The position numbers and the translations under genes are program-made. Of a DNA stretch of 64,000 nt, positions 1,203-55,367 are shown one piece after another (the first letter of the stretch is position 1; the number at the start of each line of letters is the position of its first letter). This DNA comes from Lachnospiraceae bacterium (GTDB taxonomy: Bacteria; Bacillota; Clostridia; Lachnospirales; Lachnospiraceae). The notes under the pieces are model-generated. The model was not told the origin of the DNA and made no database searches. It saw only the letters and a program-made list of their open reading frames with translations. Location of the stretch: contig SVEE01000011.1 of assembly GCA_015057525.1 (NCBI GenBank), positions 1 through 64,000 on the forward strand. The letters are read 5' to 3'.

Positions 1203-1286
1203 TGCGGGAGATGGGACTTGAACCCACACGACGTTACCATCACTAGATCCTTAGTCTAGCCTGTCTGCCAATTCCAGCACTCCCGC
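1203..1286 (-). tRNA. tRNA-Leu (anticodon AAG)
   Basis: On the minus strand the acceptor stem is GCGGGAG paired with CTCCCGC, followed by discriminator A. The D arm is CTG/CAG, the anticodon stem CTAGA/TCTAG encloses loop CTAAGGA (anticodon AAG, reads CUU), and the long variable arm has stem GATG/CGTC, as expected for a class II leucine tRNA. The T arm is GTGGG-TTCAAGT-CCCAT. CCA is not encoded. The 3' end faces the integrase, so the attachment site of the island probably overlaps the 3' half of this gene. Confidence 0.95.
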
Positions 1287-7172: not shown

Positions 7173-7200
7173 ATATCGGCTTAATCGCTCCCTTAATTTA
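7173..7200 (-). promoter_or_regulatory. Sigma-D (flagellar)-like promoter
   Basis: Minus strand TAAA (7197-7200), 16 bp, GCCGATAT (7173-7180), very close to the sigma-D consensus TAAA-N15/16-GCCGATAA. A TATAAT overlaps at 7170-7175 but has no good -35. The TAAA and spacer lie inside the outer arm of palindrome copy 1. It would drive the calcium-binding-repeat gene. Confidence 0.6.
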
Positions 7201-7738
7201 CCATACCACCACCAAATGGTATTCTCCCCTTAGCCACCACTCATCCCTTGCGCCAGCCACTCCAGTCAATGAATCCTAGTAGCATACAGATGTCTAAGAA
7301 TAAAAATGTGCATCGAAAACTGTTCTAGAAACGCCGGCACTTAGCTTGTACAATTAGGCATATGAGAATAACAAATGTGCTTGGAAACACGCTTTCGCTT
7401 GGACGGAAACGCAGCAGTACGTAAGTGTGAAAAATAAGAACCCTTGATTATCAAATATCTTTGAAATCAAGGGTTCTTATTTTTCGCACTAAGTGCTGGC
7501 GTTTCCTGACAGTTTCCTAGCATCATTTTTATTCTTATATGCCCTTCTTGCAAGCTTATGTACCGCTGCGTTTCGTCCAAGCGAGAGCGTGTTTTCGAGC
7601 ACATTTATTATTCCTTAGACATCTGTATGCTATTAAGAATCAGTTAGTATAATGGCTGGCGCAAGGGTTATGACTCCTTGTTCATTCTGGAGAATACCAT
7701 TTCGTAACCGTCATTGCCGTAATTAAGGGAGCGATTAA
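7181..7738. repeat. Nested palindrome, copy 1 (layers 2 and 3, core K1)
   Basis: This holds the whole gene-free stretch between the calcium-binding-repeat gene and yerC. Left to right: module A 7298-7344, stem S2 7345-7365, module B 7366-7425, core hairpin 7425-7489, A-complement 7489-7534, S2-complement 7535-7554, B-complement 7555-7613. Outside the modules the arms continue as inverted copies with exact runs of 15 bp (7245-7259 with 7653-7667), 14 bp (7214-7227 with 7689-7702) and 18 bp (7181-7198 with 7721-7738). The last two runs lie inside the yerC coding sequence. The inner module pair carries GGAAAC/GTTTCC where the outer pair has CGAAAAC/GTTTTCG. Confidence 0.9.
7425..7489. terminator. 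Core hairpin K1 of palindrome copy 1
   Basis: Arms GAAAAATAAGAACCCTTGAT and complement with an A-rich 5' side and T-rich 3' side on both strands, terminator-like. Nearly identical, in inverse orientation, to the core at 33986-34048. Termination activity is inferred. Confidence 0.6.
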
Positions 7739-18048: not shown

Positions 18049-18588
18049 TCACAAACCGCAAATATACACCTATAGACCAAAGATAGCTCCACACCCATAT
18101 AAAAAACACACCCTAACCCTTAGCCCTAACATAAAAAAATTCCTGTGCCAGGGTATATATAGCAATAATAAATGCACTCGAAAACACGCTCTCGCTTGGA
18201 CGAAACGCAGCGGTACTAAGTCTTCAGAAACAACCTGTATGAATAAAAATGTGCATCGAAAACTGTTCTAGAAACGCCGGCACTTAGTGCGAAAAAGAAA
18301 AGCCATGGATTACAAAAATGTTTGTAATCCATGGCTTTTCTTTTTCACACTTACGTACCGCTGCGTTTCGTCCAAGCGAAAGCGTGTTTTCGAGCACATT
18401 TGTTATTCTACAGGTTGTTTCTGAAGACTAAGTGCCGGCGTTTCTAGAACAGTTTTCGGTGTGCATTTTTATTGCTATATATGCCCCAGCACAGGAATTT
18501 TTCATTATTTGAAAATAGTGGCTAGGGTGTGTTTTTATATTGGGTATGGAGCTATCTTTGGTCTATAGGTGTATATTCGCGGTTGTCA
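18049..18588. repeat. Nested palindrome, copy 2 (layers 1 and 2, core K2)
   Basis: This fills most of the gene-free stretch between the ABC ATPase and gltA. Left to right: module B 18163-18220, stem S1 18221-18240, module A 18241-18287, core 18291-18346, B-complement 18350-18408, S1-complement 18409-18427, A-complement 18428-18474. The outer arms include a perfect 31-bp inverted match (18061-18091 with 18547-18577), of which 26 bp lie inside the gltA coding sequence. Both module pairs are the CGAAAAC/GTTTTCG type. The core stem is unrelated in sequence to that of copies 1 and 3. Bases 17940-18048 hold only the weak promoter region of the ABC operon. Confidence 0.9.
18288..18349. terminator. 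Core hairpin K2 of palindrome copy 2
   Basis: Perfect 26-bp stem (18291-18316 with 18321-18346) with loop AATG; it begins GAAAAAGAAAAGCCATGG and ends CTTTTTC. The flanks GTGC and CACAC match those of core K1 although the stem sequence differs. Terminator-like on both strands. Confidence 0.65.
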
Positions 18589-33376: not shown

Positions 33377-33721
33377 ATGCACGAAAAAAGAAAATACGAA
33401 AGACTTCCTATCAAACTTACATTGGAAGTTTCTAACCTTTTTAAGCAAGATGGTATAAAGATTGATTCTTTAGATACAGAGATAGAAGTATTTGACATTT
33501 CCAAAGCTGGCATCGGCTTTATGTCAGAAAGCAAATTACCAGTAGGCTATTACTTTAATGCAACATTGGAATTTGAAAGCACAGACGAGATTATCCTCTC
33601 TGTAGTTAAAATCCTTCACGTCAAAGAAATAGGCACATCAGGCTATCGTTACGGCTGTGAATTCATAGGACTTCCAACTATGTACCACCACATCTTCGAC
33701 GAATACGCACAGACATTATAA
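33377..33721 (+). CDS. PilZ-domain c-di-GMP-binding protein
   Basis: A single-domain PilZ protein of 114 residues. The c-di-GMP-binding motifs are intact: R5-K-Y-E-R9 (RxxxR) and D40-I-S-K-A-G45 (DxSxxG). The start is the ATG eight bases after GGAGG; the frame opens 14 codons earlier without a site. An extended -10, TGATATAAT, lies at 33318-33326. Next to exopolysaccharide-type genes (rfbD, sugar transferase) a role in c-di-GMP control of surface polysaccharide or motility is possible but inferred. Palindrome copy 3 starts at its stop codon. Confidence 0.93.
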   Translation: MHEKRKYERLPIKLTLEVSNLFKQDGIKIDSLDTEIEVFDISKAGIGFMSESKLPVGYYFNATLEFESTDEIILSVVKILHVKEIGTSGYRYGCEFIGLPTMYHHIFDEYAQTL

Positions 33722-34332
33722 AACCACAGCACACCCCATATATCTAAGGCTTGTAAATGTATTATATATGCCTTGCATATTAAGATATATAAAGGGTAAA
33801 AATGTGCACCGAAAACTGTTCTAGAAACGCCGGCACTTAGTCTTCAGAAACCACCTGTAGAATAACAAATGTTCCCGAAAACACGCTCTCGCTTGGACGA
33901 AACGCAGCGGTACGTAAGCTTGTGCAATTAGGCATATGAGAATAAAAATGTGGCTGGGAAACTGTCAGGAAACGCCAGCACTTAGTGCGAAAAATAAGAA
34001 CCCTTGATTTCAAAGTTATTTGATAATCAAGGGTTCTTATTTTTCACACTTACGTACTGTTGCGTTTCCGTCCAAGCGAAAGCGGGTTTCCCAGCACATT
34101 TATTATTCTCATATGCCTAATTGTACAAGCTAAGTACCGGCGTTTCTAGAACAGTTTTCGGTGCACATTTTTATTCTTACAGGTGTTTTATGAAGACTTA
34201 GCACCGCTGCGTTTCGTCCAAGCGAGAGCGTGTTTTCGAGCACATTTGTTACTCTTAATATATCTTAATAGACAAGGCATGTGCGAAAATTTACAAGCCT
34301 TAGATATATGGGGTGTGCTGTGAGTTTTATTA
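33716..34332. repeat. Nested palindrome, copy 3 (full: layers 1-3, core K1)
   Basis: This fills the whole gap between the convergent PilZ and rfbD genes. Left to right: A 33795-33840, S1 33841-33859, B 33860-33918, S2 33919-33939, A (GG variant) 33940-33985, core 33986-34048, B-complement (GG variant) 34049-34108, S2-complement 34109-34129, A-complement 34130-34176, S1-complement 34177-34196, B-complement 34197-34254. The outer arms share a perfect 34-bp inverted match (33725-33758 with 34289-34322) and end at both stop codons. This is the longest copy and contains every layer seen in the other two. Confidence 0.92.
33986..34048. terminator. Core hairpin K1 of palindrome copy 3
   Basis: Stem GCGAAAAATAAGAACCCTTG and complement with A-rich and T-rich flanks. 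Its reverse complement nearly equals the core of copy 1, showing that the two copies lie in opposite orientation. It could end both PilZ and rfbD transcripts. Confidence 0.65.
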
Positions 34333-53117: not shown

Positions 53118-53145
53118 CGAAATAAATCCCTTGTTATTTATTCCA

Positions 53146-53308
53146 AAGTAGCGCTCCATCTTACGATGACAGTCATACAGCTCTTAACTGCACAACCAGG
53201 AAAATGGTGCTTAGACAACCACAATCCTTCGGCGACGTTCCCTTTCTTCCATGTTCTTCTGATCTAAGTCATCCCATGAACTACTAATAAGCATCGCACC
53301 TCTACCTA
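53146..53308 (-). promoter_or_regulatory. Lysine riboswitch (L box)
   Basis: Minus strand shows the class signatures in order: GTAGAGGTGCGATGC (P1 5' side and the conserved loop), AGTAGT, AAAGGGAACGTCGCCGAAGG, and a closing P1 strand GGAGCGCTAC that pairs with GTAGAGGTGC with wobble. Terminator and dapA follow. This accounts for the whole 344-bp gap before dapA. Confidence 0.95.
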
Positions 53309-53350
53309 AATAATCGCTATATATACAGCCCTTGGCTGTCAGTTGAAATG

Positions 53351-54152: not shown

Positions 54153-54378
54153 AGTTGCGTATGATTCAACATGGTAATCTCATAGATATGAGTTACAACA
54201 GCAAACCACTGCAACGCGCTGACAAACTAACTAATAACTTCGACTAAGACTCTCAGTAATGCCTTCGAGCCTAAGTCTTCGTAATTAGTGGATTTCGTCA
54301 GTCGCTAAATACGCAGTTTAAAAGTTTGCTGATTTCAACTCATATCTATGAGATTACCATGTTGAACCATACGCAACT
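54153..54378. repeat. Long imperfect palindrome, different family
   Basis: Arms of about 110 bp in the 493-bp gap between the divergent SSB-like and methyltransferase genes. The outer arms match almost perfectly (AGTTGCGTATGATTCAACAT at 54153 with its near complement ending at 54378; then ATCTCATAGATATGAGTT with its complement). The inner part pairs less well (ACTAATAACTTCGACTAAG with CTAAGTCTTCGTAATTAG). It carries no A or B module. It does not look like an intrinsic terminator since U-tracts are missing. Outside it the gap is AT-rich promoter DNA. Confidence 0.85.
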
Positions 54379-54503: not shown

Positions 54504-55367
54504 ATGAATAATATTATAGAAATAACAGACTTTAACGCACCAGAGCTTGATATATATGCTAGACTTACAGAAAACCAGCTTTTAAATAGACACGAACCTG
54601 ATAAAGGTATTTTTATTGCTGAAAGCCCTAAAGTTATAGAGCGTGCCCTTGATGCAGGCTGTGAGCCAATTTCAATTTTAATAGAAAAAAAGCATATTGA
54701 AACTCAAGGAAAAGATATTCTTGAGCGCTGTGGGGATATTCCTATTTATACTGCTGAATTTGATGTTCTTACACAGCTAACGGGATTTAAGCTGACTCGT
54801 GGTATGCTTTGTGCCATGAAAAGGCCTCTTCTTCCAAGTATTGAAGAAGTATGTAAAGATAAGAACAGAATTGTTATATTGGAAAATGTAATGAATCCTA
54901 CTAATGTTGGTGCTATATTTAGGTCGGCTGCTGCCCTTAATATGGATGCAGTCCTACTCACGTCTGGATGCAGCAACCCTCTGTACAGGCGTTCAATAAG
55001 AGTTAGTATGGGAACAGTATTTCAAATCCCTTGGACTTTTATTGAAAACGATAATTATGATACTTTCGATGTATCTATAATTCCAGAAACAAACAACGTT
55101 CCTTCAAGTTACATAGATGAAATAAAAGCTTTAGGCTTTAAAACCGCTGCAATGGCATTAGATGATAACTCTGTTTCTATCGATGATAGTGTTCTTAATT
55201 CAGAGGAAAAACTTGCTATAATTTTGGGAACAGAAGGGGATGGTCTTGCCACTTCGACCATAGCAGATTGCGATTACACAGTTAAAATACCTATGGCACA
55301 TGGCGTTGATTCCCTTAACGTAGCTGCGGCAAGCGCCGTAGCATTTTGGCAACTTGGAAAAAAATAA
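54504..55367 (+). CDS. TrmH/SpoU-family RNA methyltransferase
   Basis: SAM-dependent 2'-O-ribose methyltransferase of the SPOUT fold, 287 residues. Motif 1 is ILENVMNPTNVGAIFRSAAA, motif 2 IILGTEGDGL and motif 3 KIPMAHGVDSLNVAAASAVA, forming the SAM knot. An N-terminal substrate-binding domain of about 110 residues (KGIFIAESPKVIERALDAG) points to rRNA or tRNA as target. The modified position is unknown. It stands alone, divergent from the SSB-like gene. Confidence 0.92.
   Translation: MNNIIEITDFNAPELDIYARLTENQLLNRHEPDKGIFIAESPKVIERALDAGCEPISILIEKKHIETQGKDILERCGDIPIYTAEFDVLTQLTGFKLTRGMLCAMKRPLLPSIEEVCKDKNRIVILENVMNPTNVGAIFRSAAALNMDAVLLTSGCSNPLYRRSIRVSMGTVFQIPWTFIENDNYDTFDVSIIPETNNVPSSYIDEIKALGFKTAAMALDDNSVSIDDSVLNSEEKLAIILGTEGDGLATSTIADCDYTVKIPMAHGVDSLNVAAASAVAFWQLGKK

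What the first reader, a model, noticed from the sequence alone, without database searches (positions are those of the whole stretch)
33716..34332. Undescribed-looking family of giant nested palindromes with alternating A and B modules (three copies)
Copies lie at 7181-7738, 18049-18588 and 33716-34332. Each arm alternates two conserved modules: A begins AATAAAAATGTGC, contains GTTCTAGAAACGCCGGC and ends CACTTAG; B begins AATAACAAATGTGC, contains CGCTTGGACGAAACGC and ends GTACGTAAG. Between modules are about 20-bp stems of other sequence that pair with the opposite arm. A always lies opposite B-complement, never A-complement. Read in the direction of the adjoining gene, the order is layer 1 (A), stem S1, layer 2 (B), stem S2, layer 3 (A), core K1. 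Copy 3 has all layers, copy 2 has layers 1-2 with another core, copy 1 has layers 2-3. A mosaic of alternating units recalls enterobacterial BIME/REP elements, but sequence and size differ and I know no match.
Basis: partly seen in the sequence, partly recalled or inferred. Interest (0 to 1): 0.92.

Follow-up and report, generated by a model that had tools for sequence, protein, structure and literature searches.

The report
Lachnospiraceae DNA palindromes with home-made arms
The three giant palindromes belong to an apparently undescribed family of repeated DNA hairpins found widely in one family of gut bacteria, in which a shared core sits between long arms that look copied, back to front, from whatever DNA lies next to it, sometimes from the end of a neighbouring gene.

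Summary
Copies 1-3 are real giant hairpins whose layers alternate as described, and four more copies lie elsewhere in the genome (7 loci, 16 layers, every layer A against B'). One layer is a conserved motif of about 110 nt. A covariance model finds it in 100 of 295 related genomes, all in the window's own family (100 of 180; 0 of 115 in other families), with 15-49 matches in each of nine genomes counted more fully. No Rfam family matches at its gathering score. The arms outside the motif differ between loci but are self-complementary (median 54 bp). G.T and A.C mismatches are equally common in them (232 vs 222), so pairing is not kept as RNA on the motif strand. In copies 1 and 2 the far arm holds inverted copies of the 3' ends of yerC and gltA. 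In one relative, nine copies with 98.5% identical cores have arms only 41-42% alike, yet each arm pairs with its own partner. Best reading: a dispersed DNA hairpin whose arms are written locally by fold-back template switching. How the core moves is unknown. Y1 (RAYT-type) transposases are absent from 29 of 37 congeneric genomes that all carry the motif, so it fails the REP/RAYT test.

The parts
7181..7298 (.). Copy 1, far (left) outer arm: no ORF of 80 aa or more listed here, holds degraded inverted copies of the yerC 3' coding end
   Evidence: Exact inverted blocks of 18 and 14 nt; SW 29 vs maximum 13 of 200 shuffles; arms 7245-7298/7614-7667 83% complementary; ORF list
7299..7344 (+). Copy 1 outer layer, module A
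7345..7366 (+). Copy 1 stem S2, pairs with 7534-7554
   Evidence: by eye
7367..7425 (+). Copy 1 inner layer, module B
7426..7488 (.). Copy 1 core hairpin K1
   Evidence: by eye
7489..7533 (+). Copy 1 inner layer, A complement
7555..7613 (+). Copy 1 outer layer, B complement
7614..7738 (.). Copy 1 near (right) outer arm; from 7668 on it is the 3' coding end of yerC (Trp_repressor family)
18049..18163 (.). Copy 2 far (left) outer arm, includes a 26-nt exact inverted copy of the gltA end with its stop codon
18164..18220 (+). Copy 2 outer layer, module B
18221..18241 (+). Copy 2 stem S1
   Evidence: by eye
18242..18287 (+). Copy 2 inner layer, module A (inner layer matched by model R1 with 62.6 bits in L234)
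18288..18349 (.). Copy 2 core hairpin K2
   Evidence: I14, 97% complementary, 4-nt loop
18350..18407 (+). Copy 2 inner layer, B complement
18428..18473 (+). Copy 2 outer layer, A complement
18474..18588 (.). Copy 2 near (right) outer arm; 18552 on is the gltA 3' coding end
33716..33794 (.). Copy 3 left outer arm, from the stop codon of the PilZ gene
33795..33840 (+). Copy 3 layer 1, module A
33841..33860 (+). Copy 3 stem S1
   Evidence: by eye
33861..33918 (+). Copy 3 layer 2, module B
33919..33940 (+). Copy 3 stem S2
   Evidence: by eye
33941..33985 (+). Copy 3 layer 3, module A
33986..34048 (.). Copy 3 core hairpin K1 with A-tract/T-tract flanks (could terminate transcription both ways)
34049..34107 (+). 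Copy 3 layer 3, B complement
34130..34175 (+). Copy 3 layer 2, A complement
34197..34254 (+). Copy 3 layer 1, B complement
34255..34332 (.). Copy 3 right outer arm, ends at the stop codon of the convergent rmlD-type gene

Best explanation
A dispersed, DNA-level hairpin element of Lachnospiraceae. Shown: a conserved core of about 110 nt (A ... core hairpin ... B', with an asymmetric internal loop facing a GCGARAGC mini-hairpin) recurs 15-49 times in each of nine well-counted genomes, mostly outside ORFs; outside it nearly every locus has its own long self-complementary arms; in copies 1 and 2 the far arm is an inverted copy of the neighbouring gene's 3' end. Inferred: once a core sits at a site, the nascent strand folds back at the hairpin during DNA synthesis and copies one flank onto the other side as an inverted duplicate (template switching). 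Repeated rounds keep the arms matched and can replace them in blocks. Purifying selection on neighbouring genes decides which flank survives as the template and tends to stop the arms near the stop codons. Nested layers arise when a further core lands inside the core of an older one; direct repeats created by same-orientation nesting would be deleted, which favours alternation. How cores move is unknown; it is not a Y1 transposase acting in all hosts.
For: Core family and structure: alignment of 58 motifs, covariation score 0.402 vs 0.160 shuffled and at most 0.184 when slid. Copy number and reach. 164 of 180 motifs are not inside an ORF of 120 aa or more. Arms: shorter arm median 54, 5-95% 29-96, max 130 bp in 180 loci. 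Not RNA-kept on the motif strand: G.T 232 vs A.C 222, p=0.67 (164 vs 145 in an overlapping set of 115). Inverted copies of coding ends: yerC 18- and 14-nt exact blocks, SW 29 vs shuffled max 13; gltA 26 nt, SW 31 vs max 14. Polarity: GltA ends alike in the 29 orthologue loci read, and the copied yerC part lies in its Trp_repressor domain. Ten further gene ends reach 12-32 nt into arms, 4 of them checked as real genes. Core/arm boundary in G122: 9 copies, core 98.5% identical, adjacent 24 nt 41-42%, background 27-30%; own-arm pairing score 14.0 vs 5.8 across copies. Paired changes between related loci (L092/L143: 3 matched pairs, 1 unmatched substitution, 1 gap; L091/L139) and block replacement of both arms (L038/L133 site 1; a second hairpin family at gltA), read from alignments. 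Simple long hairpins are rare: a gapped scan of 441.5 kb recovers 10 of 11 known copies and only 2 other palindromes with a centre of 40 nt or less. Nested pairs opposite in 10 of 10.
Against: At L038/L133 site 1 both arms changed in at least one lineage, which one fold-back copy cannot do alone. Arms up to 130 bp are long for a template switch. 4 of 180 loci have no usable arms (L099, L116, L077 twice). One conserved pair, 19-141, is C-G 38 times and T-G 18 times, a wobble that RNA would allow. In some genomes part of the arm sequence is shared between copies (the 148-bp group, G006), so arms are not wholly local. Replication orientation is biased in G006 (27 of 32, confounded with gene direction; 19 vs 4 on the deduplicated subset) but not significantly elsewhere (82 vs 63, p=0.13; 24 vs 17, p=0.35). 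Only 31 of 151 facing stop codons lie within 10 nt of an arm edge, so 'stops at the stop codon' is a soft rule. No insertion caught in the act; only one genome per species is held.
Confidence: 0.5

Rival explanations
1. A structured RNA motif in 3' UTRs (terminator, mRNA stabiliser or regulator) with a conserved core and free stems.
For: Strong covariation, a GNRA-like GCGARAGC mini-hairpin, pair 19-141 with 18 T-G, K1/K2 cores that resemble bidirectional terminators. Many copies have a gene 3' end on one side (151 facing stop codons among the loci examined).
Against: No wobble excess in the arms (232 vs 222), while 4 tRNAs from the same loci give 10 G.T and 0 A.C (small). The covarying pair 32-116 is C-G 37 / T-A 21 with no T-G. 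Nested layers lie on opposite strands. Of 129 single copies with near neighbours 60 lie with both genes, 32 against both and 37 between genes of mixed direction. No Rfam match at gathering score. Symmetric mismatches alone do not exclude a role on both RNA strands.
Confidence: 0.15
2. A non-autonomous mobile element whose core inserts into the tip of hairpins that already exist (terminators or older copies), so the arms are the old hairpin.
For: Nesting inside S1/S2 stems; in G006 the element lies after gltA where two congeners (G026, G035) have terminator-like hairpins, by eye; sharp core/arm boundary in G122.
Against: Arms take in 26 nt of gltA and, patchily, about 70 nt of yerC coding sequence. 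Simple long hairpins are scarce as targets: 2 in 441.5 kb beside 11 known copies. No cis partner protein stands out among 838 clustered ORFs; Y1 transposase absent from most congeners.
Confidence: 0.2
3. A DNA structure under selection (protein-bound hairpin or cruciform, for example in replication or chromosome organisation), with arm pairing kept by selection point by point.
For: Conserved motif across the family, 27 of 32 copies on the same replication strand in G006, divergent doublets 12 of 12.
Against: Strand bias not general; block replacement of both arms; arms copied from coding sequence; 80 of 180 family members have none detected with the strict filters.
Confidence: 0.15

Closest known systems
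REP / BIME / REPIN elements with RAYT transposases (PMC2817692, abstract read)
   Same: Extragenic palindromes, many copies per genome, alternating orientation when clustered.
   Different: Core about 110 nt with three helices, largely locus-specific arms up to 130 bp, concentric nesting instead of tandem mosaics, no Y1 transposase in most congeners.
Template-switch mutations that create and maintain hairpins (PMC8794818, abstract and start of introduction read) and homogenise inverted-repeat arms / invert spacers (PMC8604942, start of abstract in search listing)
   Same: Inverted copies of adjacent sequence, multi-base paired changes, near-perfect stems.
   Different: Here the process would recur at dozens of sites around one dispersed conserved core, and copy gene 3' ends.
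MITEs and other small palindromic repeats (ERIC, Correia, RUP; recalled)
   Same: Short, non-coding, dispersed, fold as hairpins.
   Different: The conserved part is in the middle and the ends differ between loci, even between near-identical cores.
TwoAYGGAY RNA (RF01731; Rfam match in L110)
   Same: A hairpin motif that lies close 5' of this motif in L110.
   Different: A different sequence; it does not overlap the motif reported here.
Coding palindromes in Nematomorpha mitochondria (PMC6649704, start of abstract in search listing)
   Same: Long inverted repeats that involve coding sequence.
   Different: There both arms code; here the far arm is a non-coding copy.

Membership tests
REP/RAYT | RAYT (Y1_Tnp, PF01797) gene in the genome, flanked by the repeats | tested here: not met
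   PF01797 in 8 of 37 congeners, absent from G000 and G006; in the family 42 of 100 motif-bearing vs 50 of 80 motif-free genomes. Flanking by the repeats was not looked at
REP/BIME | Clustered units in alternating orientation | tested here: met
   Nested 10 of 10 opposite; doublets under 300 nt 12 of 12 divergent; 7 of 7 G000 loci alternate. Pairs 300-1200 nt apart: 2 of 6 divergent in the same calls
REP/BIME | Short (20-40 nt) palindrome with a GTAG-type foot (recalled) | tested here: not met
   Motif about 110 nt plus arms; consensus
Structured RNA family (Rfam) | Match to a curated model | tested here: not met
   Window and 19 loci: no gathering-level match on the palindromes; with 11 loci at E<=0.1 only below-gathering matches fall on them, to microRNA and one staphylococcal sRNA model, which I take as chance hairpin likeness
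Structured RNA family (Rfam) | Covarying stems | tested here: met
Structured RNA family (Rfam) | G-U pairs tolerated over A-C | tested here: not met
   232 vs 222 in the arms of 180 loci; one motif pair (19-141) does show T-G 18 of 58
MITE / IS-derived element | Conserved terminal inverted repeats | tested here: inconclusive
   Ends differ between near-identical cores in G122, but in the 148-bp group and in G006 arm ends are partly shared
MITE / IS-derived element | Direct target-site duplication | not tested
   No systematic search made; needs empty sites from strains of one species
Template-switch hairpins | One arm is an inverted copy of sequence with an independent identity | tested here: met
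   yerC and gltA ends

The most novel reading that the evidence does not exclude
A new mode of DNA dispersal: a hairpin core joins a DNA end or stalled fork as a cap, and insertion itself makes an inverted duplication of the target flank, so that every copy builds its own palindrome out of local, even coding, sequence, and later copies enter the tip, giving concentric alternating shells.
Probability: 0.2. Interest if true: 0.92.

Novelty: new variant of a known kind. Interest (0 to 1): 0.72.

Why it matters
It is a repeat widespread in one bacterial family, found in no Rfam family nor in the papers searched here, and it offers a dozen or more natural examples per genome of palindromes that seem to be written from neighbouring DNA. 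That makes the origin and upkeep of long palindromes directly testable in bacteria. It also warns that strong covariation in intergenic hairpins need not mean RNA: the pairing here varies without the wobble preference expected of RNA.

Tried and rejected
Y1/RAYT partner: rejected by distribution. Partner encoded next to the element: 838 ORFs clustered; the clusters in most loci look like ABC ATPases, regulators and transporters, by eye without a family search. Phage origin: 0 exact matches of one pattern in viral contigs. General replication-strand rule: strong in G006, not significant elsewhere. Gene-orientation rule: not met. Absence of SbcD as a requirement: weak or absent SbcD in 49 of 100 motif-bearing vs 14 of 80 motif-free family members (outside the genus 25 of 63 vs 14 of 80, p=0.004), but G000 itself has SbcD; not corrected for kinship, the weak/absent split was set by eye from E-values, and the numbers were typed by hand into the script. 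attC-like boxes were only looked at by eye and not tested. A first, ungapped scan for coreless palindromes found 5 in 441.5 kb but missed the 8 known G006 copies in those stretches, so it was replaced by a gapped scan. Paper searches that found no description; related mechanism papers came from 80, 81, 96; sought literature on the GCGAAGC mini-hairpin.

Rows dropped: of 72 non-redundant motifs 58 went into the alignment. Most of these loci were fetched by an exact pattern, so the letters of that pattern are invariant by construction; the covariation rests on stems outside it. Of 208 model matches, 14 at locus edges, 11 long outer nested ones and 3 duplicates were left out of the arm statistics; 4 weak-arm loci stayed in the count of 180. 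G122: 10 of 16 matches were fetched; one of the 10 (L274, core one base shorter) is not in the nine compared. Doublets: one overlapping pair (L077) was left out. Several nested loci are related to each other (L071/L085, L107/L150, two in L055), so 10 of 10 is fewer than 10 independent events; 4 of the 12 doublets are from one genome (G027). The tRNA control has only 4 tRNAs. Copy numbers are lower bounds: at most 150 candidates per genome were scored.

Full report
Observation. Copy 3 folds into one rod (-340.7 kcal/mol; 20 shuffles -150.2 +/- 5.3). A DNA search of the window's own assembly (2,348,111 bases, 21 contigs) finds four more loci on C6, C7, C11 and C20. Anchor scans show alternation in all 7 loci: 16 layers, each A against B' or B against A', none A against A'. 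One exact AATAAAAATGTGC hit on C5 is taken as chance.

A family. Searching relatives with one copy gave hits in 15 of 295 genomes, the own genome included, mostly short ones over the B module (one of them, L017, looks like chance in a coding region); reading these loci showed mostly single-layer hairpins with the same motif in other genera. 58 of 72 non-redundant single-layer motifs were aligned. The shared structure is: outer stem, a GRCC/KGYC step, a variable inner stem, the ACGYCGGYRCTTAR ... YTTAGTACCGYTRCGT helix, a core hairpin, and the mini-hairpin AGCGARAGCG opposite a short single strand. Because most loci came through the pattern, its letters are conserved by construction; the stems are not. 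82.1% of cells pair; covariation 0.402 against 0.160 for shuffles and at most 0.184 for slid partners. The model R1 finds the motif in 100 of 295 relatives: all 37 genomes of the window's genus, 63 others of its family (100 of 180 in all) and none of 115 genomes of other families (family sizes by order of handles). In a class-wide sample 7 of 291 match, all in this family, of which 10 are in the sample. Fuller counts are 32 in the complete genome G006 (E<=0.001) and 15, 16, 16, 18, 19, 43, 47 and 49 in eight others (E<=0.0001). Rfam has no gathering-level match on the palindromes in the window or in 19 further loci; below gathering score only microRNA models and one staphylococcal sRNA touch them.

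DNA rather than RNA. In the outer stems of 180 loci there are 8434 Watson-Crick pairs, 232 G.T and 222 A.C mismatches (p=0.67); a first overlapping set of 115 gave 164 and 145. RNA pairing on the motif strand should spare G.T and purge A.C, as in the few tRNAs of the same loci (10 vs 0 in 4 tRNAs). Within the motif the covarying pair 32-116 is C-G 37 times, T-A 21 times, never T-G; against this, pair 19-141 is T-G in 18 of 58. I conclude that arm pairing is kept at the level of DNA, or by a copying process; a role on both RNA strands is not excluded by this test.

Arms are local. Outside the motif the arms differ between loci but pair with each other: shorter arm median 54 bp, 5-95% range 29-96, maximum 130; 4 of 180 have none to speak of. 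The cleanest case is G122: nine copies with a 108-nt core 98.5% identical (four exactly identical) have adjacent 24-nt arms only 41% and 42% identical between copies (27-30% further out), while each copy's own arms pair far better than arms of different copies (14.0 vs 5.8). In the 148-bp group and in G006 the arms keep more shared sequence.

Where the arms come from. In copy 1 the near arm runs through the 3' end of yerC (Trp_repressor family), and the far flank holds exact inverted blocks of 18 and 14 nt of that coding sequence (SW 29, maximum 13 in 200 shuffles). In copy 2 the far flank holds 26 nt of the gltA end including the stop codon (SW 31, shuffled maximum 14). GltA ends alike in the 29 loci compared and the yerC part belongs to the conserved domain, so the gene copy is the original and the far arm the copy. 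Of 151 facing stop codons 31 lie within 10 nt of an arm edge, 19 further inside and 101 outside; a stricter screen keeps ten gene ends that reach 12-32 nt into arms, stop codon included, of which the four tested by Pfam are real genes, panC-, phosphofructokinase- and rfbB-like ones among them. Arm edges come from an extension that may overrun by a few bases. In copy 3 (stem limits) and at C6 the palindrome runs from one stop codon to the other of two convergent genes. Simple long hairpins that could have served as targets are rare: a gap-tolerant scan of 441.5 kb (window and 19 stretches of G006) recovers 10 of 11 known copies and 7 others, of which 2 have a centre of 40 nt or less.

Change over time. 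Between L092 and L143 the arms differ by three matched pairs of substitutions, one unmatched substitution and one gap; in L091/L139 whole clusters are matched (read by eye). At L038/L133 site 1 the motif and its inner stem are conserved at the same place but about 20 bp of both arms are different and again complementary, while at site 2 the arms are conserved and the core hairpin is replaced. A second hairpin family at gltA in L244/L254/L259 shows the same coordinated block replacement. Template switching is known to create and maintain hairpins (PMC8794818, abstract) and to homogenise inverted-repeat arms and invert spacers (PMC8604942, start of abstract in listing).

Arrangement rules. Nested pairs are in opposite orientation in 10 of 10 (some loci are related) and in all G000 loci. 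Neighbouring copies less than 300 nt apart are divergent in 12 of 12; in the eight the two members are 63-83% identical and the flanking genes, where called, run in several directions. Pairs 300-1200 nt apart are divergent in 2 of 6. Deletion between direct repeats can explain the lack of same-orientation pairs but not the lack of convergent doublets; this part is unexplained. In G006 the motif lies on the G-rich (leading-strand) sense in 27 of 32 (my tally by replichore, and genes there run the same way), but the bias is not significant in other genomes, so I do not build on it.

What moves it is open. Y1 transposases occur in only 8 of 37 congeners although all carry the motif. No specific protein stands out beside it. 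SbcD is weak or absent more often in motif-bearing genomes (49 of 100 vs 14 of 80), which fits tolerance of palindromes, but G000 has it.

Verdict. A real DNA repeat, widespread in one family, that none of my Rfam and paper searches found described, working most likely as a dispersed hairpin whose arms are written from local DNA by fold-back copying (0.5). It behaves like BIMEs in its alternation but fails the RAYT test.

Noticed in passing
window 54153-54378: A fourth giant hairpin of a different family: 42-nt arms 98% complementary around an asymmetric 142-nt centre, upstream of the ORF at 54504; DNA fold z -13.5.
   Followed up: partly
L215 1248-1546, L223 8702-9000, L228 9010-9349, L232 5957-6454 (G006): Four more strong palindromes with centres of 84-257 nt that are not among the R1 matches; other cored hairpin families seem to be present too.
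   Followed up: no
L244, L247, L254, L259, downstream of gltA: A second hairpin family (GATTTGCTAAATCAAAGCG ... CGCAAATC) after gltA in four congeners; arms vary coordinately in the three aligned.
   Followed up: partly
L249 after gltA; L008 about 1600-1700: A third hairpin type carrying CCGACCACTGTCGCGGCC.
   Followed up: no
L110 6220-6385 and similar sequence in L043, L051, L066, L116, L146, L153, L144 and others, 5' of the motif: A conserved palindromic stretch upstream of the 148-bp version of the motif; in L110 it is the Rfam family TwoAYGGAY (RF01731, 89.9 bits). Why the two hairpins keep company is open.
   Followed up: partly
L024 (G146:C21) about 1500-1900: Direct tandem array of the motif with 187-bp period, at least three units.
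   Followed up: no
G000-G179: SbcD (TIGR00619) is weak or absent in 49 of 100 motif-bearing and 14 of 80 motif-free family members.
   Followed up: partly
L052, L086, L097, L120, L121, L123, L115, L126: Record titles say Muribaculaceae, Bacteroides, Selenomonadaceae or Mogibacterium; as the model found the motif only in the window's family these may be mislabelled bins.
   Followed up: no
window 53141-53312 (-) and 1203-1286 (-): Lysine riboswitch (RF00168) and a tRNA.
   Followed up: no
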